The notes beneath the pieces were generated by a model, which worked only from the letters and a program-made list of their open reading frames with translations, had not been told where the DNA came from and did not search any database. From positions 1-33,013 of the IMG/VR virus record IMGVR_UViG_3300010370_000132: DNA of 33,013 bases; one strand, written 5' to 3'. Positions 21,446 to 33,013 of this stretch are shown here, piece by piece. The DNA is from a virus. Made by a program: the position numbers and the translations under genes. Positions within the stretch are counted from its first letter, which is position 1; every line of letters starts with the position of its first letter.

Positions 21446-21474
21446 TTGACAACCCAGGAGCAACGTCGTATAAT
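21443..21474 (+). promoter_or_regulatory. Strong sigma70-type promoter with palindromic -35
   Basis: TTGACA (21446-21451) and TATAAT (21469-21474) match the sigma70 consensus exactly, with a 17-base spacer. The -35 is the centre of the palindrome GGGTTGACAACCC (21443-21455). Transcription would start near 21481 and read into tRNA-Gly, the small genes and the other tRNAs. A consensus host-type promoter is expected for early phage genes. The same palindromic -35 recurs at 29525-29543. Confidence 0.8.
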
Positions 21475-21538: not shown

Positions 21539-21609
21539 GCGAATGTGGTGTAGCGGTAACATCCCATCCTTCCAAGTTGGTGTCACGGGTTCGATCCCCG
21601 TCATTCGCT
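21539..21609 (+). tRNA. tRNA-Gly (TCC)
   Basis: The acceptor stem is GCGAATG paired with CATTCGC, with discriminator T. The D-arm is GTGT-AGCGGTA-ACAT, the T-arm is ACGGG-TTCGATC-CCCGT, and the anticodon loop CTTCCAA gives anticodon TCC. The anticodon stem has one T-T mismatch. CCA is not encoded. It lies about 60 bases downstream of the early promoter start point. Confidence 0.9.
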
Positions 21610-21610
21610 T

Positions 21611-21624
21611 CCCCTTTATTGGGG
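21611..21624 (+). other. Small stem-loop after tRNA-Gly
   Basis: CCCC TTTATT GGGG forms a four-pair hairpin two bases after the tRNA 3' end. No run of T follows, so it is more likely a processing or spacer feature than a terminator. Confidence 0.3.
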
Positions 21625-21643
21625 ATTTACAAATTAAATAACT

Positions 21644-21892
21644 ATGAAACCAAAACCTCTTTATTCTGACCTGATTGAAATGCCTGTAAAGACAACTCCA
21701 GAGAATGTCAAGGAAGCAAACCTAGGTCTTTTTAATTGTACGATGACACTTCCTGCTGCAGCAACTCACTGTGGCATGACCCAAAAAGAAATGAAAATGA
21801 CTTTTAGGGAGTATTTGAAGTATCATCCACCCACATACGGGAGCGTGGTGGAATCGGTAGACACACCAGACTTAAAATCTGTCGGGAATTAA
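21644..21892 (+). CDS. Small conserved-looking protein overlapping tRNA-Leu
   Basis: This 82-residue protein (MKPKPLYSDLIEMPVKTT...) reads as a compact protein with a helical C-terminal half; the segment GLFNCTMTLPAAATHCGMTQKEMKMTFREYLKYH resembles a helix-turn-helix-like helical pair, such as found in small DNA-binding or sigma-like regulators, but I cannot name a family. Its last 18 codons (from 21839) lie inside the tRNA-Leu gene, so the tail after YHPPTYG is encoded by tRNA sequence and may be a non-functional extension. It has no Shine-Dalgarno sequence and is transcribed with the tRNAs. Confidence 0.6.
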   Translation: MKPKPLYSDLIEMPVKTTPENVKEANLGLFNCTMTLPAAATHCGMTQKEMKMTFREYLKYHPPTYGSVVESVDTPDLKSVGN

Positions 21893-21923
21893 TCCTGTGG
21901 GGGTTCAAGTCCCCCCGCTCCTA
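21839..21923 (+). tRNA. tRNA-Leu (TAA)
   Basis: The acceptor stem GGGAGCG pairs with CGCTCCT (one G-T pair), with discriminator A. The T-arm is GGGGG-TTCAAGT-CCCCC, the variable arm is long as expected for leucine, and the anticodon loop CTTAAAA gives TAA. Length is 85 bases. It overlaps the 3' end of the preceding small gene. CCA is not encoded. Confidence 0.92.
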
Positions 21924-21997
21924 CTGGGAGGAATAATAAAGGGATTGAGTATAACTCTCCGCCTTCCTTAAACTAAATATAATAAACGGTGTAGAGA

Positions 21998-22285
21998 ATG
22001 AAGCTCAGAATCACCAAAGCTTATTGCTGGCATTCTCCAGAAAAGAGTATAAAAAACGTCGTTATGATGTACTTCGTCAATTCTATACCGTTTACATGGG
22101 ATGATTTAACCGAAGAGGAAGAAGCAGACCCATCAGTTATTGTTGAAGCCAATAATAATTTGACTTATAGTGCAGAAGATTTATTCAGAGCTTCTGCATA
22201 TCTAATAATGGAAGAAGCACATCCATGCTTTTTTGAAATGGAATTGGAAAATCCAGAAGTATTGGCAGAATTAGATGATTTTTAA
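21998..22285 (+). CDS. Hypothetical acidic small protein
   Basis: This 95-residue acidic protein is not recognised. The N-terminus (MKLRITKAYCWHSPEKSIKNVVMMYFVNSIPFTWDDL) has a possible beta-alpha start. An EEEE-rich loop follows, and the C-terminal 40 residues (LFRASAYLIMEEAHPCFFEMELENPEVLAELDDF) are helical. It starts 74 bases after tRNA-Leu; the spacer contains AT-rich sequence (TATAATAA at 21978-21985) that could be a weak promoter. Its stop ends one base before tRNA-Thr. It probably belongs to the early tRNA transcript. Confidence 0.6.
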   Translation: MKLRITKAYCWHSPEKSIKNVVMMYFVNSIPFTWDDLTEEEEADPSVIVEANNNLTYSAEDLFRASAYLIMEEAHPCFFEMELENPEVLAELDDF

Positions 22286-22286
22286 T

Positions 22287-22358
22287 GCCCTTGTAGCTCA
22301 GTGGTAGAGCAACGGTTTTGTAAACCGTTGGTCGCTGGTTCAAATCCAGTCGGGGGCT
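22287..22358 (+). tRNA. tRNA-Thr (TGT)
   Basis: The acceptor stem GCCCTTG pairs with CGGGGGC (with G-T pairs), with discriminator T. The D-arm is GCTC-AGTGGTA-GAGC and the anticodon arm is ACGGT-TTTGTAA-ACCGT, giving anticodon TGT. The T-arm is GCTGG-TTCAAAT-CCAGT. CCA is not encoded. The tRNA begins one base after the preceding gene's stop and ends 17 bases before the next ATG. Confidence 0.93.
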
Positions 22359-23697: not shown

Positions 23698-26600
23698 ATG
23701 GGTCTTAGTCGCTTAGATAATTTTCTGAAGAATAGTAGAGGCGATATTCTATACGTCGATCCTTCTAGTATAGACTCTACAGATAGTATTGAAAACCAAG
23801 GTAACTCATTAGTTAGACCTTTTAAAACAATTCAAAGGGCACTGATTGAGGCAGCAAGATTTTCATATCAAAAAGGATTTGATAATGATAGATTTAGCAG
23901 AACAACTATCATTGTTTATCCAGGTGAACACCTCATTGATAATAGACCAGGATGGATACCAGTACATAATGCACCAATCTCTGGTAATAATTGGTTGACT
24001 AGAAGTGGTGCAACTTCTAATGACCTTACAGAGTTTACATTAAATAGTGATTTTGATATTGATTCTCCAGAGAATGATCTTTATAAGATGAACTCTGTTT
24101 ATGGGGGTGTTATCATTCCTCGTGGTACATCAATTGTTGGTATGGATCTTCGTAAAACAAAGATTCGTCCAAAATTTGTTCCAAATCCTGCTGATGATAC
24201 AATTGATACAACTTGTTTATTCCGAGTAACTGGTACTTGTTACTTCTATCAGTTTACATTCTTTGATGCTGATCCAAATTCAAACGTATTTAAGGACTAC
24301 GGTCCCTCAAAATTTGTTCCTAACTTCTCTCACCATAAATTAACTTGTTTTGAGTATGCAGATGGTGTTAATCCTGTAAAATTCAATGATACTTATTTAA
24401 ATTATAATACAACCAGAACTGATCTTGATATTTACTATCAAAAAATTGGACTGGTTTATGGACCCTCTAGTGGAAGAGATATTAGTCCAGATTTTCCAAG
24501 TGCTTCTCTTGATGTTCAATCAAAGATTGATGAATTTAGAATTGTTGGATCTAAAGGTCAAAATGTAGGGATCTCTAGTATTAGAGCTGGTGATGGTTCA
24601 TTCTCTAGCAAAAAGATTACTGTTGATATTGTTGAATCCGTTGGTGGATTGGATGTAGACACTCCAATTAGAATCGAAGGAATTCCTAGCGGTGGATATA
24701 ATGGATCGTTTGTTGTAAAAACTGTAGAGAGTCCAACACGGATTACTTATGAAGTATCCTCTGCTCCTGCAAATCCACTTCCAACAATAGTATCTGGAGC
24801 TCCAACACTTAACATCGTCGTTGATAGTGTTACATCTGCTTCTCCATATATCTTTAACTGTTCTCTGCGTTCAGTTTATGGAATGTGTGGACTTCATGCG
24901 GACGGAAGCAAGGCAGATGGATTTAAATCCATGGTTGTCGCTCAGTTTACTGGTATTGGTCTGCAGAAGGATGATAATGCATTTGTAAAATATAATGCAG
25001 TATCTGGTGTTTACGAAGATTCCACAGCAGTCACAAATCTCCACACCAATTCTTCTGCAGTATATAAACCAGCATACGAAAACTTCCATATTAAAGCATC
25101 AAACGATGCGTTCTTGCAGTTGGTGTCGGTATTTGCTATTGGATATGCAAATCACTTTGTTGCAGAATCTGGTGGAGACCATTCGATTACAAACTCCAAC
25201 TCAAACTTTGGTGCAAAGGCAATTGTTTGTAGAGGATTTAGAAATGATGCCTTCCCGAGAGATGATACTGGATACCTCACTCACATCCTGCCACCACAAC
25301 GAGTAGAGAGTGATGAAATAACAATTGAATTTGCTCCTATTGATGTTGAGAAGACAATTTCTGTAGGTAATACATCAAGATTGTACCTCTATAATGAATT
25401 CAACAGAAACATTCCTCCAAAATCCGTTTTAGAAGGATATCGCATTGGTTCAAAGTATAATGATAAATTAAAGGTCATCATCAACATTGGTAATGTTGGT
25501 GTGACTAAAGAAGCTGTTATTGTAATGCCAAATACCCAAGGGACTGGCAACTACGAAGTAACCGCTACAAAATTATCTACCGTAGGTAGAACTGCTATTG
25601 GTATTAACAGTATTACATCAAATATTTTTACAGCAACTGAACCTCACCAGTTCATTAATGGTGAATCGGTTCGTATTTTGAGTGATGATGGTGAACTTCC
25701 TGATGGTCTAAGACATAACCAAGTTTATTATGCAATCACTTCAGGAATTAATACTGATCAAATCAAATTAGCACAAACTTTTAACGATACTGTAAGTTTA
25801 TCTGCTATTACTGTTAATAGTAAGGGTGGTATTCTTCAAATTGAATCCAGAGTATCTGATAAGAAGTCTGGAGATGTTGGACACCCAATACAGTATGATA
25901 GTACTATTGGTCAGTGGTTTATCACTGTAAGTTCTTCTAGTAACTCAATTTATAGTACTATTGTTGGTTTGGGGACAGCAGCTCTTGGTAGAGCAACTCC
26001 CAAAACCTTTATCAGTAGAACTCCTGATAATAGATCTCTTGAAGATAGAATTTATAAGGTAAGATATGTAATTCCAAGAGATTCTACTGTTCTTGGTAGA
26101 CCTCCAGAAGATGCATTTATTATGCAAGAATCTGGAAGCACTTCTGGATTAAGCAATCCTGAGATTGCTAAATTTAAGAGCATCTCCCCAGTTGTTCTAT
26201 CAAATACTTCAGAACTTAGAAATCCTAGATTTATTTCTAATGCAACATGGGATGGTAACGTTGGTCTTGCATCATTTACAACAGAAGTTCCACATGAACT
26301 ATCTGTTGGTTCTAAAGTTCAAATCTTTAACGTTGTATCAACCGCAAACACTGTTGGTCTAGCCAATACTGGATACAATGGAGTATTTACTGTTGTATCT
26401 AGAGCTCATAGAAGAGAATTTACTGTTGGACTGACAACTAACCCTGGTTTATTTGCCAACAATGTTAACCAAAGAAATACAAATCTTCCAAGATATGAGA
26501 GAAAGGAGTTTAATAACACATTCTACATTTATAGAAAAGAAACCGTTCAGGACTACGTTCCAAATGCTAAGGATGGTGTTTATCACTTAACTCTTCTTGA

Positions 26601-29517
26601 TTCATCTTCATCACCACAAGTTGCCCCATTCCAGGGATTAAGATTCTCTCAACCAGTTAAGAATTTATACCCACAACTTGATAGGGATAATCCAGATTCT
26701 GATCCTGATCAGACCAGAACCTTTGCTCTTCCATCACCACTTGGACTGACTGAAATCAATAACCCCCAAAATAGCGTTACGAAAGAGGTTATTAACAAAA
26801 ACATTCGTGACTTTGTTGTTGGATTTGGAATTGTTGATATTCAATCAAGCTCTGGCACAGCACATACTATCAGAACTCAAAAGGACCATGGACTAAATCC
26901 AATCACTAGGGTTGGAATTACTAGTGCTGGTGTAAATTATGGTGATGGGTCTGGAAGCATTCAGACATTATACAATGCAAGACTTGTTGGATTTGCTGGT
27001 TCTACAACTGGTAAGTATGCAACAGCAAACGTTGAAATTGATTCTACGGGTGCAATAACTGCAGTTAAAATTGTAGAGGGTGGATCTGCTTTTGGTATTG
27101 GCAATACTTTAGCAGTTGTTGGTGTCGCAACAACTGCTGGATGGGTTCCTGGATATGTAACTGTTCTCAATATTCACAACAGCGTTGGTGATGTAATTAA
27201 AATTGATGGTATTCGTGACAGTAGATTTACTGATTATAACAACGTTTATAAAATTGAAAATATTGTAACTGGTGATGAAGAGAATATTCAAGTGTCTTCT
27301 TCATCAACAATTTATGCCAGGTATCAATTTACTGGATCACAACCGATTGCTGGAATTAATACGAATGGACTCAGTAATGTAAACTCTACGATTCTATCTG
27401 ATGTAACTGCTTATGTTACTGGAGAATCTGTTGGTATATCTTCACTTACATATAATAATATTACAGGTATTGCTAGTGTAATTACATCTAAATCCCATGG
27501 ATACCTAGTTGGAAATAGAGTTAAGTTTGGTGGGTTTAATCAAGGAATTTATAATGGAGAATTCACAATCTCTGAGGTTTATAATGTATCAAGTTTTGCT
27601 GTAAAAGTTGGTGTTGGAACAACTACAGCAGTTGCCTCTGGATCTGGTTTAGTTTATCCAGTAGGATTTAGTGCTCAAAATAGTCCTATAGATTTTGCAG
27701 ATGAAGCAGCATCCTCAAGACTTGTCTATCAATATGCTGGCATTACTACCACTCTTAGTGCATCTCTAACAGATCCTACAATTAATACCTTGACGGTTAC
27801 TAATGCAACTCATATGGGTTGGGATCTTGGTGATTATCTGATTGTAGATAATGAAATTATGCGTATCAGTGAGTCAATCACTTCTAATACTGCGATTGAT
27901 GTATTCCGTGGATTATTTGGAACTCAAAAACAAACTCACGTTGTTGGAGCAGTTGCTAGAAAAGTTAGATTTAAACCAGTAGAATTTAGAAGAAACTCTA
28001 TTGTTCGTGCATCTGGACATACCTTTGAGTATCTTGGATTTGGTCCTGGTAACTACTCAACTGCATTACCAGAAAGACAAGATAGACAATTTAGAAGCGT
28101 TGAGAGAATTCTATCACAGTCTGTATCTGATAATGGTGGTACTCCATTCTATAATGGATTAGATGATAAGGGTAATGCATATACTGTAACTAAGTTTACA
28201 AGTGGTGCAACAGGTCAAGATTTAATTACTAATGCGCCAATTCCAACAGTAAGAGGTGAAGATCTTACTAGTAATAGTGATGCTATTGGATTTGATGTTG
28301 ACATAACAGAACAACTGACAGTCAACAGGGGTCTTAAAGTTGATGGCGGTAAAGATAATAATATTGTCTCTGAGTTTAATGGTCCAGCAGTATTCAATGA
28401 AAAGGTAACAATTAATGATTCTGTTGAAGCAAATAGTTTGCTTGTTCAGGGTGATCAAATTATTGCTAGAGAATACACAATTGGAATTGCAACACCAGCG
28501 ATTGCTGGTAATGTTGGTAACGTTGTATTTGATGCAGAGCCACCATCTGGTGGAGAACTTGGATGGGTTTATACTAATGATAATGCTTGGAAGAAGTTTG
28601 GTCCTATCCAGTCTGAACCAGATAATTACTATGTTGGTCTATGGAGCGGAACATTCCAGGGAGACGGATCTGGACTATTCAACGTATCTGACGTTTGGGT
28701 ATTTGATGGTGTTGGTATCTCTACTATTACAAACGTAGGTATTGAGACAACATCTGCAAAAGCTGGGTACTCCCTGTATGTTGCTGGCCAAACTCTGTTT
28801 GAGAACAACGTTGAGTTCAGAGCACAATCACTAACTTGGAATATTACTGATGGATTCTTGGTTAATACTGGTATTAGCACATTTAACCAACAAGTTAATG
28901 TTAATACTTTAAGAGTAATTGGTATCTCAACATTTAGAAATGATGTCTTAATTACAACAAATCCAGATACAACTGGTGATGTTAATGGTAACTATCTAAG
29001 ATTCCAACAGACTGACCTTGCTCTTAATGCTTCATACTTCTATGGTGGATTGAAGTTTGAAGGTAAGGATATTGGTAATGATGGCGAACGTGGATATATT
29101 AAGGGTGTATCTGAAGGAACTTCAGGACAATTTGCTCTTATCTTCGGTACACAAGGTTCTGGTGTATCTAATCCACAAGAAAGACTGAGACTTAATAATG
29201 CTGGTAATGCCACGTTCTCTGGAACAGTCACGGCAAATTCTGATGAGAGACTTAAGGAAAACGTTGTTGGTATCAGCAACGCTCTCAGCAAGGTTCTGGA
29301 TCTCAGAGGTGTATACTTCAACCGTATTGGTCAATCTGAGCGTGAGATTGGTGTTATTGCACAGGAGATTGAAAAGGTCCTACCAGAACTGGTGTATGAG
29401 TCTCATGATGGCACTAAATCTGTTGCATACCAGAATATGGTTGCGGTTCTGATTGAAGCTATTAAGGAACAACAGCAGCAAATCAACGAACTCAAAGAGC
29501 GACTGGACAATCTTTGA
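23698..29517 (+). CDS. Giant fibre-like structural protein with C-terminal S74 chaperone
   Basis: This 1939-residue protein is the largest in the window. The N-terminus (MGLSRLDNFLKNSRGDILYVDPSSIDSTDS...) has the look of a pectate-lyase-like beta-helix, the type used in phage fibres and tailspikes, and the long middle consists of short beta modules rich in Gly, Ser, Thr, Asn and Val. The C-terminal about 95 residues are an S74 intramolecular chaperone that trimerises and then cuts itself off: SDERLKENV holds Ser1848 and Lys1853, the same five-residue spacing as the catalytic pair of endosialidase, followed by IGVIAQEIEKVLPEL and a terminal coiled coil (AIKEQQQQINELKERLDNL). A late promoter precedes it and a strong terminator follows 8 bases after the stop. 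Its exact tail location is unknown. Confidence 0.8.
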   Translation: MGLSRLDNFLKNSRGDILYVDPSSIDSTDSIENQGNSLVRPFKTIQRALIEAARFSYQKGFDNDRFSRTTIIVYPGEHLIDNRPGWIPVHNAPISGNNWLTRSGATSNDLTEFTLNSDFDIDSPENDLYKMNSVYGGVIIPRGTSIVGMDLRKTKIRPKFVPNPADDTIDTTCLFRVTGTCYFYQFTFFDADPNSNVFKDYGPSKFVPNFSHHKLTCFEYADGVNPVKFNDTYLNYNTTRTDLDIYYQKIGLVYGPSSGRDISPDFPSASLDVQSKIDEFRIVGSKGQNVGISSIRAGDGSFSSKKITVDIVESVGGLDVDTPIRIEGIPSGGYNGSFVVKTVESPTRITYEVSSAPANPLPTIVSGAPTLNIVVDSVTSASPYIFNCSLRSVYGMCGLHADGSKADGFKSMVVAQFTGIGLQKDDNAFVKYNAVSGVYEDSTAVTNLHTNSSAVYKPAYENFHIKASNDAFLQLVSVFAIGYANHFVAESGGDHSITNSNSNFGAKAIVCRGFRNDAFPRDDTGYLTHILPPQRVESDEITIEFAPIDVEKTISVGNTSRLYLYNEFNRNIPPKSVLEGYRIGSKYNDKLKVIINIGNVGVTKEAVIVMPNTQGTGNYEVTATKLSTVGRTAIGINSITSNIFTATEPHQFINGESVRILSDDGELPDGLRHNQVYYAITSGINTDQIKLAQTFNDTVSLSAITVNSKGGILQIESRVSDKKSGDVGHPIQYDSTIGQWFITVSSSSNSIYSTIVGLGTAALGRATPKTFISRTPDNRSLEDRIYKVRYVIPRDSTVLGRPPEDAFIMQESGSTSGLSNPEIAKFKSISPVVLSNTSELRNPRFISNATWDGNVGLASFTTEVPHELSVGSKVQIFNVVSTANTVGLANTGYNGVFTVVSRAHRREFTVGLTTNPGLFANNVNQRNTNLPRYERKEFNNTFYIYRKETVQDYVPNAKDGVYHLTLLDSSSSPQVAPFQGLRFSQPVKNLYPQLDRDNPDSDPDQTRTFALPSPLGLTEINNPQNSVTKEVINKNIRDFVVGFGIVDIQSSSGTAHTIRTQKDHGLNPITRVGITSAGVNYGDGSGSIQTLYNARLVGFAGSTTGKYATANVEIDSTGAITAVKIVEGGSAFGIGNTLAVVGVATTAGWVPGYVTVLNIHNSVGDVIKIDGIRDSRFTDYNNVYKIENIVTGDEENIQVSSSSTIYARYQFTGSQPIAGINTNGLSNVNSTILSDVTAYVTGESVGISSLTYNNITGIASVITSKSHGYLVGNRVKFGGFNQGIYNGEFTISEVYNVSSFAVKVGVGTTTAVASGSGLVYPVGFSAQNSPIDFADEAASSRLVYQYAGITTTLSASLTDPTINTLTVTNATHMGWDLGDYLIVDNEIMRISESITSNTAIDVFRGLFGTQKQTHVVGAVARKVRFKPVEFRRNSIVRASGHTFEYLGFGPGNYSTALPERQDRQFRSVERILSQSVSDNGGTPFYNGLDDKGNAYTVTKFTSGATGQDLITNAPIPTVRGEDLTSNSDAIGFDVDITEQLTVNRGLKVDGGKDNNIVSEFNGPAVFNEKVTINDSVEANSLLVQGDQIIAREYTIGIATPAIAGNVGNVVFDAEPPSGGELGWVYTNDNAWKKFGPIQSEPDNYYVGLWSGTFQGDGSGLFNVSDVWVFDGVGISTITNVGIETTSAKAGYSLYVAGQTLFENNVEFRAQSLTWNITDGFLVNTGISTFNQQVNVNTLRVIGISTFRNDVLITTNPDTTGDVNGNYLRFQQTDLALNASYFYGGLKFEGKDIGNDGERGYIKGVSEGTSGQFALIFGTQGSGVSNPQERLRLNNAGNATFSGTVTANSDERLKENVVGISNALSKVLDLRGVYFNRIGQSEREIGVIAQEIEKVLPELVYESHDGTKSVAYQNMVAVLIEAIKEQQQQINELKERLDNL

Positions 29518-29524
29518 TTTGGTC

Positions 29525-29549
29525 GGGGGGTTGACAACCCCCCTTTTTT
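29525..29549 (+). terminator. Rho-independent terminator overlapping next promoter
   Basis: GGGGGGTTGACAACCCCCC (29525-29543) is a perfect inverted repeat followed by six T residues, so the transcript from the fibre gene should end here. A workable stem is GGGGGGTT/AACCCCCC with a three-base loop. The -35 box TTGACA of the next promoter is inside this palindrome. Confidence 0.85.
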
Positions 29550-29561
29550 ATGGGTTATAAT
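29531..29561 (+). promoter_or_regulatory. Sigma70-type promoter embedded in the terminator
   Basis: TTGACA (29531-29536) and TATAAT (29556-29561) match the consensus, with a 19-base spacer that is slightly long. Start would be near 29568, 35 bases before the preferred ATG (29603) of the helicase-methyltransferase. The spacer contains the terminator arm and T-run. Confidence 0.65.
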
Positions 29562-29602
29562 ACCTGGGTAGTTTACAAGCATAGTACTTGATCAACATTT
29601 AC

Positions 29603-32600
29603 ATGGACACCCTAAAGGGTGCTACTAACAGTTTTAACCTGGGTGAGACTCATTTTACCTGGGAAGAACGCCACCGTGGTCGTGATTACGGAAAGGCAAA
29701 GCAAGTAGTAACCCAACTTGATTCTGGGTATGTTCGTGTATCCTGGTGGGAAGGTGTATCTACTCGCACAGATAAAGATCACCACCATGACTCTATTATC
29801 CATGCTTGGTTGCTGACTCTTCCTGGAATTAAGAAGATTGGTCAGGAGACGTTTGAATTTGATCTCAAACTCTACACTCTAGAGATCATCTCTCAAATGA
29901 TCTATGAGAAGTTCTTTTCTGGTAAAGAAGAGGTTTATGAAGTATTTGATCCTCGTCCTTATCAAACTAAATTCTCACAGAAAATTTCTACTGCATGGAA
30001 TCAGAAAAAATATCTAGAATTTCTTCTGTTTGCAAAGTGTCGTGCTGGTAAATCAGTGATGGTTTTGAAGCATATTGTAGATAGTAATTATAAATTGTCT
30101 GTTGTTTGTTCCCGCCAAAAGTCTCCTGAAGGTTCTTGGTATAATGATTCCAAACGATTCTTCCCCACAATCAAGTACATTTCCGTTAAGGATCCTTCTT
30201 GGGAAGTTCAACTCGCTTATTGGATGGATCGTGATGTAAACATTGTTCTCTGGGGCACAGTTCAAAGTATTATCAAACGTCTTGATAAAATTAGTAATGT
30301 TGACTTTCTTGCCTTTGATGAAGCACACATTGGTGGAACTGCTGATCAGTTTGTGCAAGTTCGCAACACATTAAACACTCGCACCTGCTATATCTCTGGC
30401 ACTGCTCACAAACTTTGTTGGATGTTCCCTGAGGAAGATCAGAAGTTTGTTTACACTTATTTTGACGAGCAACTTGATGTTCAACGTGGTGTATTTAAGC
30501 GTCCTAAGATGAACATTGCTTTCGCAAAGTATCAAACTTCGGCATATCAAGAGTTGTTTGGTGATGATCCAGATGCCATGAAGAATATCTTTACCATGAA
30601 GGGAGACAAGTTTCTTCATGAATCTCTTGTCCGTGAGTTTATTCATAATTATTTTGGACCTCAACGTGAGATTCGTATTGGAGATCGTCTTCTTAAAGGT
30701 ACTTATCACATGATGGCAATGCCCAGTGTTAAAGCGTGTCATGCATTTCAGGAATTGGTTGATTGTTATTATCCTGCTCTGGTAGTTACTTCTGATACTA
30801 AAAACGATCAAGATGATATCAATCGCTTTCTGGATGAGCATCCAAAAGCACTGATCATCACTCAATCTGCAAATGTTCTTGGTGTGACTGCTAAGAAGAT
30901 TGATACTGTTATTAACTGCCGTGGTGGAGAATCAATTGAGTTTTGGACTCAGTTTGCTTTCCGTGGTGGTTCTGGTGATCATGACTGGTGGGTAATTGAT
31001 TTTGATGCTCAACGTTGTCTCCGTGCCATTCATACTGCTTTCCAACTTGCATGTGATAATAATCCTGCACTTTCTCAATATAGTGTTATTGACTTTACAA
31101 ATATCCATGAATGGAATAATGGATTCCAAATTCTGTCTAAGGAAATGCTTGAGGATGCTCTTGCTGCAGATGTAGAAGGAAGTATCTCTACTATTACAAG
31201 TATTGTTGAATCTTTAGATTTGAGTGGAGTTGGGGATTTTAATTTGAATATTAAGACCGATCTCACTACTGTGATGAAAGAGACTCAACTTAATGATAAT
31301 GGTGCCAATAATAAAAGTTGTGTGGTTCGGGAGACTGAAAGTGTAAAAAAGTCTGATGACCTTGATACTCTGAAGAAGCAAACTATCAAGGCACTGCTTG
31401 AATCTATTCCTCTGACCATGTTTTATATCATTAGAAATGGTCAGAACGTGTATTCAATCAATGATGTAATTGGTTCTGAGATTTATCCTTCGGTTACTGG
31501 TGATCATGAGGGTATTCTTGATGAGGTTATTCGTAAAAACCCACACAGCATTGAACTTCTTACTCGTCGTATTGGTATTGTTTCCAATAGCATTCAAAAA
31601 AGTATGAGGGATTCTGTATCCAATACCATTAATGAATTGTCAGTATCTTCTCAAACTCAACAGAGTATTCCTGTAAAACTTTTTGATTCTATGATTGATG
31701 GTTGTAAGGATTTGACCCAAACTTATATGTTTGGTGATCCTAGTGGATCTCATACTGCTCGTCTTTTGGAGAGAGGCGTGAATCCAAATAACATTACTGT
31801 ATGGGAGAGTTGCGATAGTCACCGCAATCGTGTAAAATATGTAAATGGTAGTGTCAATGTTGTTGGTTCTCATCCAAATATGAAGTTTACTGCTATTCTT
31901 GCCAACCCCCCATATAACGATCCTACTAAGAAGGCAAAGAATAATAAACTTTGGCCTATTGTAGTCGAACAGCATCTTGAATTGATTGCTCCTGGTGGAG
32001 ATGTGTGTGAGGTTACTCCCGCATCTGTTCTAGGTACTACTGGTAAAGGTAAGAAGTTCATGAAGTTGTTCTCTACCAAATATAATCTAAAGTTGATTGA
32101 TTATACAGCAGACGATTATTTTGTTGAAGGTGTTGCTATTTGTCGTTGGCACCTTACAAATGAACCATATCAAGGTAAAACTGTCGTGATTACTCATGAT
32201 GGTTCCTTCACTTGGGATTTGCGAGATGGTCTTCCTTTAGTTGGAGATGCTGCAATCAAGAACTCTATTCTTAATAAAATTGCTAACTCAAATCATCCAC
32301 GCATTCCTTTGAAGATGGGTCAAGCAATTGCTAAGGAGGATCACATTCCTGATGGTAAATATGAGATTTACCATTCTTCTAAAAAAGTCAAGCGCACTAA
32401 CATTGTTCCTACAACTGGAGATGTGCTAAAGTTTATTGTTCCATTCTCTTCTACCTATAAAAATGGTGGTATTTTTACTTCCAATGGATTTGTAGGTATG
32501 TTTAATTGTTGGTGTCCTATTACTTCGGAAGAAGAAGGGGATCGTCTTACTAAGATTTTTGATCTTAAAATCATTCAGTTTTTCATTGACAATTATAAAA

Positions 32601-32731
32601 AGACTGCAGGATTTACTGCTGCCATTAAGAATGGGGAAGTTCCTGAAATCACAGATTATGATAATCTGCCTGAACAATTTGGTTTTACCGAAGAAGAAGT
32701 TGAATATCTAAAGCGCACAAATGTCCTCTAA
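29603..32731 (+). CDS. SF2 DEAH helicase fused to N6-adenine DNA methyltransferase
   Basis: This protein of about 1042 residues (from ATG 29603; a TTG at 29588 would add five) joins two enzymes. The N-terminal about 110 residues have no clear family. An SF2 helicase core follows, with a variant Walker A CRAGKS (146-151), Walker B DEAH (239-242), motif III SGTAHK and a motif VI-like FRGGSGDHD. The C-terminal half has a SAM-binding segment FGDPSG and the adenine methyltransferase motif NPPY (768-771). ATP-driven helicase and methyltransferase together recall Type III, Type ISP and BREX-like modification modules, but no nuclease motif is visible. Codons favour CGN arginine, as in gp32. Its stop overlaps the start of a second methyltransferase by 11 bases. 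Roles in modifying phage DNA or blocking host restriction are inferences. Confidence 0.75.
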   Translation: MDTLKGATNSFNLGETHFTWEERHRGRDYGKAKQVVTQLDSGYVRVSWWEGVSTRTDKDHHHDSIIHAWLLTLPGIKKIGQETFEFDLKLYTLEIISQMIYEKFFSGKEEVYEVFDPRPYQTKFSQKISTAWNQKKYLEFLLFAKCRAGKSVMVLKHIVDSNYKLSVVCSRQKSPEGSWYNDSKRFFPTIKYISVKDPSWEVQLAYWMDRDVNIVLWGTVQSIIKRLDKISNVDFLAFDEAHIGGTADQFVQVRNTLNTRTCYISGTAHKLCWMFPEEDQKFVYTYFDEQLDVQRGVFKRPKMNIAFAKYQTSAYQELFGDDPDAMKNIFTMKGDKFLHESLVREFIHNYFGPQREIRIGDRLLKGTYHMMAMPSVKACHAFQELVDCYYPALVVTSDTKNDQDDINRFLDEHPKALIITQSANVLGVTAKKIDTVINCRGGESIEFWTQFAFRGGSGDHDWWVIDFDAQRCLRAIHTAFQLACDNNPALSQYSVIDFTNIHEWNNGFQILSKEMLEDALAADVEGSISTITSIVESLDLSGVGDFNLNIKTDLTTVMKETQLNDNGANNKSCVVRETESVKKSDDLDTLKKQTIKALLESIPLTMFYIIRNGQNVYSINDVIGSEIYPSVTGDHEGILDEVIRKNPHSIELLTRRIGIVSNSIQKSMRDSVSNTINELSVSSQTQQSIPVKLFDSMIDGCKDLTQTYMFGDPSGSHTARLLERGVNPNNITVWESCDSHRNRVKYVNGSVNVVGSHPNMKFTAILANPPYNDPTKKAKNNKLWPIVVEQHLELIAPGGDVCEVTPASVLGTTGKGKKFMKLFSTKYNLKLIDYTADDYFVEGVAICRWHLTNEPYQGKTVVITHDGSFTWDLRDGLPLVGDAAIKNSILNKIANSNHPRIPLKMGQAIAKEDHIPDGKYEIYHSSKKVKRTNIVPTTGDVLKFIVPFSSTYKNGGIFTSNGFVGMFNCWCPITSEEEGDRLTKIFDLKIIQFFIDNYKKTAGFTAAIKNGEVPEITDYDNLPEQFGFTEEEVEYLKRTNVL

Positions 32732-33013
32732 AAACAAACATAACAAACTACATGGATCTAAATTAGATAGATCCGATGAACGAATTAAACAAACTCAGGA
32801 GGTTTTTACTCCTCCTGAGTTGATCGATAAAATGATTGCTGAGATACCAGAAGAAGTTCTTAAAGATCCAAATTCTACATTTATTGATAACTGTGCTGGT
32901 GATGGTAACTTTTTAGTTCAATTACTCAAAGCTCTTAGGAAGTATCATTCCGAACAGCACATTGTTGATAATATGTTGTATGCTGTTGAGTTGATGGAAG
33001 ATAATCATAAAGA
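32721..33013 (+). CDS. Second adenine-type DNA methyltransferase (3' end outside window)
   Basis: Only the first 97 residues are seen. They start MSSKNKHNKLHGSKLDR with a basic leader, then give methyltransferase motif X-like TQEVFTPPELIDKMI (about 25-39), SAM motif I FIDNCAGDGNF (54-64) and the acidic motif II-like YAVEL (about 88-92). This is the layout of the TaqI/gamma class of N6-adenine methyltransferases. The ATG overlaps the helicase-methyltransferase stop by 11 bases (ATGTCCTCTAA), so the two are co-translated. A perfect 10-bp inverted repeat lies inside the coding sequence at 32793-32820. Truncated by the window end. Confidence 0.75.
   Translation, partial: MSSKNKHNKLHGSKLDRSDERIKQTQEVFTPPELIDKMIAEIPEEVLKDPNSTFIDNCAGDGNFLVQLLKALRKYHSEQHIVDNMLYAVELMEDNHK
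32793..32820 (+). repeat. Perfect 10-bp inverted repeat in the second methyltransferase gene
   Basis: ACTCAGGAGG, eight-base loop TTTTTACT, then CCTCCTGAGT form a perfect 10-pair hairpin about 70 bases after the start codon. The left arm contains AGGAGG, a full anti-16S match held in the stem. It codes for part of the motif X region. Confidence 0.7.

What the first reader, a model, noticed from the sequence alone, without database searches (positions are those of the whole stretch)
29531..33013. Helicase-methyltransferase fusion paired with a second methyltransferase
Seen: one gene combines a variant Walker A (CRAGKS), DEAH box and NPPY motif. The next gene (ATG overlapping by 11 bases) is a second adenine-type methyltransferase with motif FIDNCAGDGNF. 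The unit has its own sigma70-type promoter, so it is probably expressed early. Known: helicase-methyltransferase fusions occur in Type III/ISP restriction and BREX modules. Inference: a phage modification or anti-restriction system, with no nuclease visible in the window; the unassigned N-terminal 110 residues could hold extra function.
Basis: partly seen in the sequence, partly recalled or inferred. Interest (0 to 1): 0.68.

Follow-up and report, generated by a model that had tools for sequence, protein, structure and literature searches.

The report
Phage DNA methyltransferase split across genes
In a virus of cyanobacteria, two overlapping genes that look like two DNA-methylating enzymes are probably two halves of one enzyme, and the larger half also carries a DNA motor and a probable DNA-cutting domain, which together resemble a restriction-modification machine.

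Summary
The helicase-methyltransferase fusion and the 11-base overlap with the next gene are real. The reading "two methyltransferases, no nuclease" is not what the evidence shows. The second gene is cut by the window end; its relatives are short proteins (mostly 133-138 aa) with motifs X, I, II and III (SAM binding) and no catalytic motif IV. The large protein has motif IV (NPPY) and what follows, but no canonical motif I. Partners that begin at motif IV, one of them 59% identical to this protein's C-terminus, still carry the small gene. Searches started from the large half found the small gene beside it in 14/14, 21/21 and 46/46 testable loci (the first two sets overlap). Aeromonas phages and a rumen contig fuse both halves in one chain, motif IV first. 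The pair is best read as one split amino-methyltransferase (about 0.85). The "unassigned" N-terminus looks like a T5orf172/GIY-YIG-type domain, so a nuclease is likely. Some related loci carry a separate Mrr-like PD-QxK protein. The module looks like an ATP-driven, Type ISP-like restriction-modification or self-modification system of T4-like cyanophages (restriction role about 0.45, untested). The claimed promoter is weak and the Walker A box is canonical.

The parts
29525..29550 (+).
   Evidence: Terminator scan; loop sequence not conserved in L016, L031, L032
29556..29561 (+). TATAAT, -10-like element kept in most close relatives; no conserved -35 at normal spacing
29588..32731 (+). Large subunit, 1047 aa (TTG start preferred; ATG at 29603 gives P0001, 1042 aa)
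   Evidence: ORF; phrog_22930 E=1.5e-212, phrog_3689, phrog_16; dN/dS about 0.06 against L005
29588..29917 (+). N-terminal T5orf172/GIY-YIG-type domain, probable nuclease
   Evidence: Relatives exceed the Pfam T5orf172 cut-off; invariant Y5 G19 D33 D68 H72 E87 over 22 sequences; AF2 pLDDT 79.9; Foldseek viral hits are mainly Orf172/GIY-YIG/Bro/N1R proteins
30032..30055 (+). Walker A, AKCRAGKS (canonical)
30317..30328 (+). DEAH box of the SF2 helicase/translocase domain
   Evidence: phrog_16 helicase E=4e-17
31670..31897 (+). Lobe before motif IV with GDPSGSH where SAM motif I would be; conserved in this clade, variable or absent in others
31880..32731 (+). Catalytic half of the methyltransferase: motif IV NPPY (31904-31915) onward plus probable target-recognition region
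   Evidence: Pfam Eco57I, phrog_3689; L092 homologue (59% identical) begins 7 residues before NPPY
32721..33013 (+). Small subunit: SAM-binding half (motif X about 32793-32813, motif I about 32880-32912, motif II about 32979-33005); runs off the window, expected about 138 aa
   Evidence: Relatives are short ORFs without motif IV; alignment of 29; L005 full length 138 aa

Best explanation
The two genes encode the two subunits of one split amino-methyltransferase (m6A more likely than m4C). The small protein supplies the SAM-binding half (motifs X-III); the C-terminus of the large protein supplies the catalytic half (motif IV onward) and target recognition. The overlapping genes probably give coupled translation. 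The large protein also carries an SF2 DNA motor and an N-terminal T5orf172/GIY-YIG-type domain that is probably the nuclease. Together they would form an ATP-driven complex, analogous to Type ISP restriction-modification, by which a T4-like cyanophage marks its own DNA and could cut unmarked DNA of host or competitor, or at least methylates its own DNA. Shown here: domain content, split point, pairing, natural fusions, selection. Inferred: assembly, methylation, nuclease activity, biological role. Confidence: split methyltransferase about 0.85; T5orf172-type domain about 0.85 and active nuclease about 0.55; restriction-modification role about 0.45.
For: Small-gene ORFs in L001-L099 are short and lack motif IV. 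Large partners that begin at motif IV still carry the small gene: NPPY at residue 9 in 42 of 45 P-SSM2_036-type ORFs; L092. Searches from the large half: small gene abutting in 14/14, 21/21, 46/46 testable loci (the first two sets overlap). From the small gene: 63 of 80 abutting, 12 within 0.9 kb, 2 cut by contig end, 3 overlapping or one gene away. Natural single-chain fusions in permuted order; the fusion profile aligns its C-terminal half to residues 10-93 of M.BseCI, with NPPY at 128-138 as a sub-threshold segment. Both halves map to consecutive stretches of intact families phrog_799, phrog_9133, phrog_5172. N-terminal domain. PD-QxK-like protein in sister loci and full gene sets L063/L077. 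GIY-YIG fused to the catalytic half in PKO111. Purifying selection.
Against: No complex was modelled; the AF2 model of a fusion was poor (pLDDT 49). The large protein keeps a conserved DPxGxH lobe that could bind SAM by itself. S-CAM7 00055 has a normal-looking motif I and still has a small gene next door. Some loci have two catalytic ORFs for one small gene. The window N-terminus gives no Pfam hit, profile-profile support is weak, and no PDB fold match was found. Co-occurrence counts come from related phages and are not independent.
Confidence: 0.6

Rival explanations
1. Split methyltransferase used only for self-protection (anti-restriction): the helicase moves or remodels the methylating complex, and the N-terminal T5orf172-type domain only binds DNA or is an inactive nuclease.
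For: Phage methyltransferases commonly serve anti-restriction; T5orf172 is often annotated as a DNA-binding domain (names); the second Tyr of the GIY-YIG pattern is not conserved; some loci (L092, P-SSM2) have the split pair without the nuclease-helicase protein.
Against: Invariant Y, H and E residues in the domain; a different nuclease-type protein occupies the locus in other phages; nuclease plus motor plus methyltransferase is the make-up of restriction-modification systems.
Confidence: 0.35
2. The large protein is a complete methyltransferase with an unusual SAM site (GDPSGSH lobe), and the small protein is a regulator or a second SAM-binding partner rather than half of the active site.
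For: GDPxGxH and the following ITVWE are conserved in this clade and keep a strand-loop-helix-strand pattern; S-CAM7 00055 has its own motif I beside a small gene.
Against: Close homologues without this lobe persist with the small gene (L092, 59% identical); the lobe differs strongly between partners while the small protein keeps motif I; fused forms have no such lobe at all.
Confidence: 0.12
3. Homing- or recombination-type nuclease module: the T5orf172 domain and helicase act in DNA exchange, and the methyltransferase part is a passenger.
For: T5orf172 has been linked to recombination in jumbo phages (PMC7824862); PHROGs labels the PKO111 relative a homing endonuclease.
Against: The methyltransferase halves are under strong purifying selection and are the most constant part of the locus, kept even where the nuclease-helicase is lost (L092, P-SSM2).
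Confidence: 0.04

Closest known systems
Type ISP restriction-modification enzymes (LlaGI, LlaBIII)
   Same: Order of parts: nuclease-type domain, SF2 motor, linker, methyltransferase with NPPY, recognition region (PMC3874165)
   Different: The nuclease-type domain is T5orf172/GIY-YIG, not Mrr PD-QxK; the methyltransferase is divided over two genes; no detectable sequence similarity to any PDB chain
Gamma-class amino-methyltransferases (M.BseCI, CamA)
   Same: Motif X TP box, motif I and NPPY; profile matches to M.BseCI and CamA
   Different: Motifs X-III and IV onward are on separate polypeptides; fused relatives have the order IV - recognition - X - I, the order of beta-class enzymes (own knowledge)
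Natural two-polypeptide C5-methyltransferases M.AquI and M.EcoHK31I
   Same: One enzyme divided between two polypeptides
   Different: C5 chemistry; split late (motif IX or X on the small subunit), not between SAM-binding and catalytic halves (PMC3404938)
Cyanophage proteins in S-CAM7 (gp055-gp056-gp057) and ACG-2014f; phrog_22930, phrog_3689, phrog_4376
   Same: The same families, as separate genes
   Different: Labelled 'restriction subunit' or hypothetical, 'DNA methyltransferase' and hypothetical; the split is not noted in these annotations

Membership tests
Type ISP restriction-modification | N-terminal Mrr-like PD-(D/E/Q)xK nuclease | tested here: not met
   N-terminus is T5orf172/GIY-YIG-type; a PD-QxK-like protein occurs only as a separate gene in other loci
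Type ISP restriction-modification | SF2 helicase-like translocase in the same chain | tested here: met
   Walker A, DEAH, phrog_16 E=4e-17; translocation not testable
Type ISP restriction-modification | Complete gamma-methyltransferase and recognition domain in the same chain | tested here: not met
   No canonical motif I in the large chain; motifs X-III on the small gene
Type ISP restriction-modification | ATP-dependent cleavage between two head-to-head sites | not testable with these tools
   Needs biochemistry
Amino-methyltransferase (gamma-like), split | Motif IV (N/D/S)PP(Y/F/W) | tested here: met
   NPPY at 31904-31915; Eco57I above the Pfam cut-off
Amino-methyltransferase (gamma-like), split | SAM-binding motifs X and I | tested here: met
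   On the small protein; N6_Mtase above the Pfam cut-off; invariant over 29 relatives
Amino-methyltransferase (gamma-like), split | The two halves assemble into one active enzyme | not testable with these tools
   Supported only indirectly by fusions and pairing
T5orf172 / GIY-YIG superfamily | Profile match of the domain | tested here: inconclusive
   Relatives L044, L062, L071, L093, L094, L142 pass the Pfam cut-off; the window itself does not; hhalign weak
T5orf172 / GIY-YIG superfamily | Fold and conserved catalytic-type residues | tested here: met
   Foldseek viral hits with probability 0.96-1.0 (E 3e-3 to 5e-2) mainly to Orf172/GIY-YIG/Bro/N1R proteins; invariant Y, G, D, H, E; no PDB hit
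Type III restriction-modification | Separate Mod (DPPY, beta class) and Res with C-terminal PD-EXK | tested here: not met
   Helicase and catalytic half are one chain, NPPY, no C-terminal nuclease
BREX | PglX/PglZ/BrxC-type partners | tested here: inconclusive
   No PADLOC family matches the large protein; no BREX gene labelled in annotated relatives; the other window proteins were not run against PADLOC

The most novel reading that the evidence does not exclude
A new phage-borne class of ATP-driven restriction-modification in which one conserved small SAM-binding subunit serves interchangeable catalytic/recognition subunits and interchangeable nucleases (T5orf172/GIY-YIG fused to the motor, or a free PD-QxK protein), used by cyanophages against host or competitor DNA.
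Probability: 0.35. Interest if true: 0.8.

Novelty: new variant of a known kind. Interest (0 to 1): 0.62.

Why it matters
Amino-methyltransferases are normally single chains. A natural split exactly between the SAM-binding and catalytic halves, kept in scores of phage contigs and mirrored by fused forms in other phages, is a natural test of how this fold can be cut and permuted, and offers parts for targeted DNA methylation. It would also suggest functions for PHROG families of unknown function (phrog_4376, phrog_22930, phrog_11371) and points to a phage-encoded Type ISP-like system, so phage-against-host or phage-against-phage restriction becomes testable.

Tried and rejected
AF2 of the natural fusion (7 sequences): pLDDT 49, not used for a fold search. 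PDB sequence search with the large family: nothing; PDB fold search with the N-terminal domain: nothing credible. hhalign of window-type N-termini against T5orf172-positive ones: weak (P 0.013; 1e-4 for an intermediate group). N-lobe of the large protein against the small subunit: no similarity. P-SSM2_035, upstream of a split pair, was first suspected to be part of the system; it had no profile hits and its start resembles other tail proteins (by eye). PotF matches to the small protein are chance-level. The genome scan with the small-family alignment gave 3 MAG contigs in a collection of 84,980 species genomes, so the family looks mainly phage-borne. Searches of the open literature for split or permuted adenine methyltransferases found no natural example like this one; subscription journals and REBASE were not searched.
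Full report
WHAT WAS CHECKED. The window is a 33,013-base virus record. Its baseplate-hub and tail genes match T4-like cyanophages. The reported ORF is real: 29588-32731, 1047 aa from TTG. AKCRAGKS, DEAH and NPPY are where described. The next ORF begins at 32721, overlaps by 11 bases and runs off the window. The Walker A fits the standard pattern. The 'sigma70 promoter' pairs a TTGACA in the loop of a terminator hairpin with a TATAAT 19 bp downstream; relatives L016, L031 and L032 lack the TTGACA, while most keep the TATAAT.

THE SECOND GENE IS HALF A METHYLTRANSFERASE. The small protein's best PHROG is a 134-aa family (phrog_4376). For all places found in loci L001-L099 the ORF is short (mostly 133-138 aa; the longest values are open starts upstream of the real one) and none contains an NPPY-like motif. 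The alignment of 29 keeps motif X (TxEVFTP), motif I (F-D--AG-GNF), motif II (Y-VE--EDN) and a motif-III-like end, then stops. Its best PDB match is the N-terminal part of CamA.

THE LARGE GENE HOLDS THE OTHER HALF. Its C-terminus matches Eco57I and phrog_3689 and carries NPPY, but in the place of SAM motif I it has GDPSGSH. In other large partners this lobe is very different or missing. L092 begins 7 residues before NPPY and is 59% identical to residues 760-1042 of P0001. In the search started from P-SSM2_036, 42 of 45 short partner ORFs have NPPY at residue 9. So the split lies between motifs III and IV.

THE HALVES TRAVEL TOGETHER. Three searches started from the large half gave the small gene abutting in 14/14, 21/21 and 46/46 testable loci; the first two sets share contigs. 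Started from the small gene, 63 of the 80 best contigs have a motif-IV ORF abutting, 12 have one within 0.9 kb, 2 are cut by the contig end, and the remaining three have one overlapping (L086) or one gene away (L063, L077). Many of these loci are related phages, so the counts are not independent events. They do span divergent large halves and both gene orders (in ACG-2014f the small gene lies upstream of the helicase).

NATURAL FUSIONS. Aeromonas phages phiAS5 (417 aa), ZPAH1 (386 aa) and avDM12 (415 aa) and a rumen MAG contig (448 aa) encode one chain that starts at NPPY (residues 9-12) and ends with the small-like half. The profile of such fusions aligns its C-terminal half to residues 10-93 of M.BseCI (E=4.4e-6), and its NPPY to residues 128-138 in a second, sub-threshold segment. 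In intact families the two halves map to consecutive stretches (phrog_799, phrog_9133, phrog_5172). These fusions are the strongest evidence that the window's two proteins make one enzyme. An AF2 model of a fusion was too poor to show the joint fold.

THE N-TERMINUS. N-terminal domains of relatives L044, L093, L094, L142, L062 and L071 exceed Pfam's T5orf172 cut-off. Across 22 aligned N-termini Y5, G19, D33, D68, H72 and E87 are invariant. The AF2 model (pLDDT 79.9) finds, after its own family, mainly Orf172/GIY-YIG, Bro and N1R/p28 viral proteins, but no PDB structure. The window's own sequence gives no Pfam hit, and profile-profile support is weak. So a T5orf172/GIY-YIG-type domain is likely and its activity is open.

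CONTEXT. Ten loci in hand carry a protein of about 190 aa with an invariant D-G-D-G...QxK pattern like Mrr nucleases (no Pfam hit). In seven of the 80 small-gene contigs it sits between a motif-IV ORF and the small gene, and L063 and L077 have nuclease-methyltransferase-helicase-small. Klebsiella phage PKO111 fuses a LEM-3-like GIY-YIG domain to the catalytic half, with a small gene next to it. A DEAH helicase of about 390-430 aa follows the small gene in many loci (ResIII in L005). A nuclease-type part, a motor and the split methyltransferase therefore recur together. That favours restriction-modification over plain self-methylation without proving it.

SELECTION. Against L005, dN/dS is about 0.06 for both genes (dS 0.88 and 0.78), and every domain of the large protein has far fewer replacement than silent changes.

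COMPARISON. The order nuclease-type domain, motor, methyltransferase, recognition part is that of Type ISP enzymes (PMC3874165), but two defining features are not met: the Mrr nuclease and a complete single-chain methyltransferase. It is built like a Type ISP enzyme; it is not filed as one. Natural two-polypeptide methyltransferases described in the paper read here are C5 enzymes split elsewhere (M.AquI, M.EcoHK31I; PMC3404938). The order IV-TRD-X-I of the fused relatives is that of beta-class enzymes (own knowledge), while the motifs are gamma-type. NPPY enzymes can also make m4C (PMC9613975), so the methylated base is not settled.

WHAT IS NOT KNOWN. Assembly, SAM binding, methylated base and motif, nuclease activity, timing and role are untested. 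The conserved GDPxGxH lobe, the loci with two large ORFs per small one, and a partner with its own motif I (S-CAM7 00055) are unexplained.

Noticed in passing
window 23698-29517: Tail-fibre-like protein of 1939 aa ending in a Peptidase_S74 self-cleaving chaperone domain (Pfam E=1.2e-13).
   Followed up: partly
window 21446-21474 and 21539-22358: A perfect 12/12 sigma70 consensus just upstream of a tRNA cluster (Gly-TCC, Leu-TAA, Thr-TGT).
   Followed up: no
L045, L053, L056, L068 upstream of the small gene: Two different catalytic-half ORFs stand before one small gene, as if one SAM-binding subunit served two catalytic partners.
   Followed up: partly
L063 2606-6414, L077 2672-6411: Compact gene set: PD-QxK-like protein, NPPF methyltransferase, DEAD helicase, small subunit.
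   Followed up: partly
L004 678-2149 (S-CAM7 00055-00056): A methyltransferase with a normal-looking motif I (FYDPAMGGGQYL) still has a small-subunit gene 8 bp downstream; unexplained by the split model.
   Followed up: no
L101 1991-3926 (Klebsiella phage PKO111 gp114-gp115): LEM-3-like GIY-YIG domain fused to an NPPF catalytic half, followed by an overlapping small-type gene of 153 aa.
   Followed up: partly
L005 8564-9826 and equivalents: A DEAH/ResIII helicase of about 390-430 aa follows the small gene in many loci and may belong to the system.
   Followed up: partly
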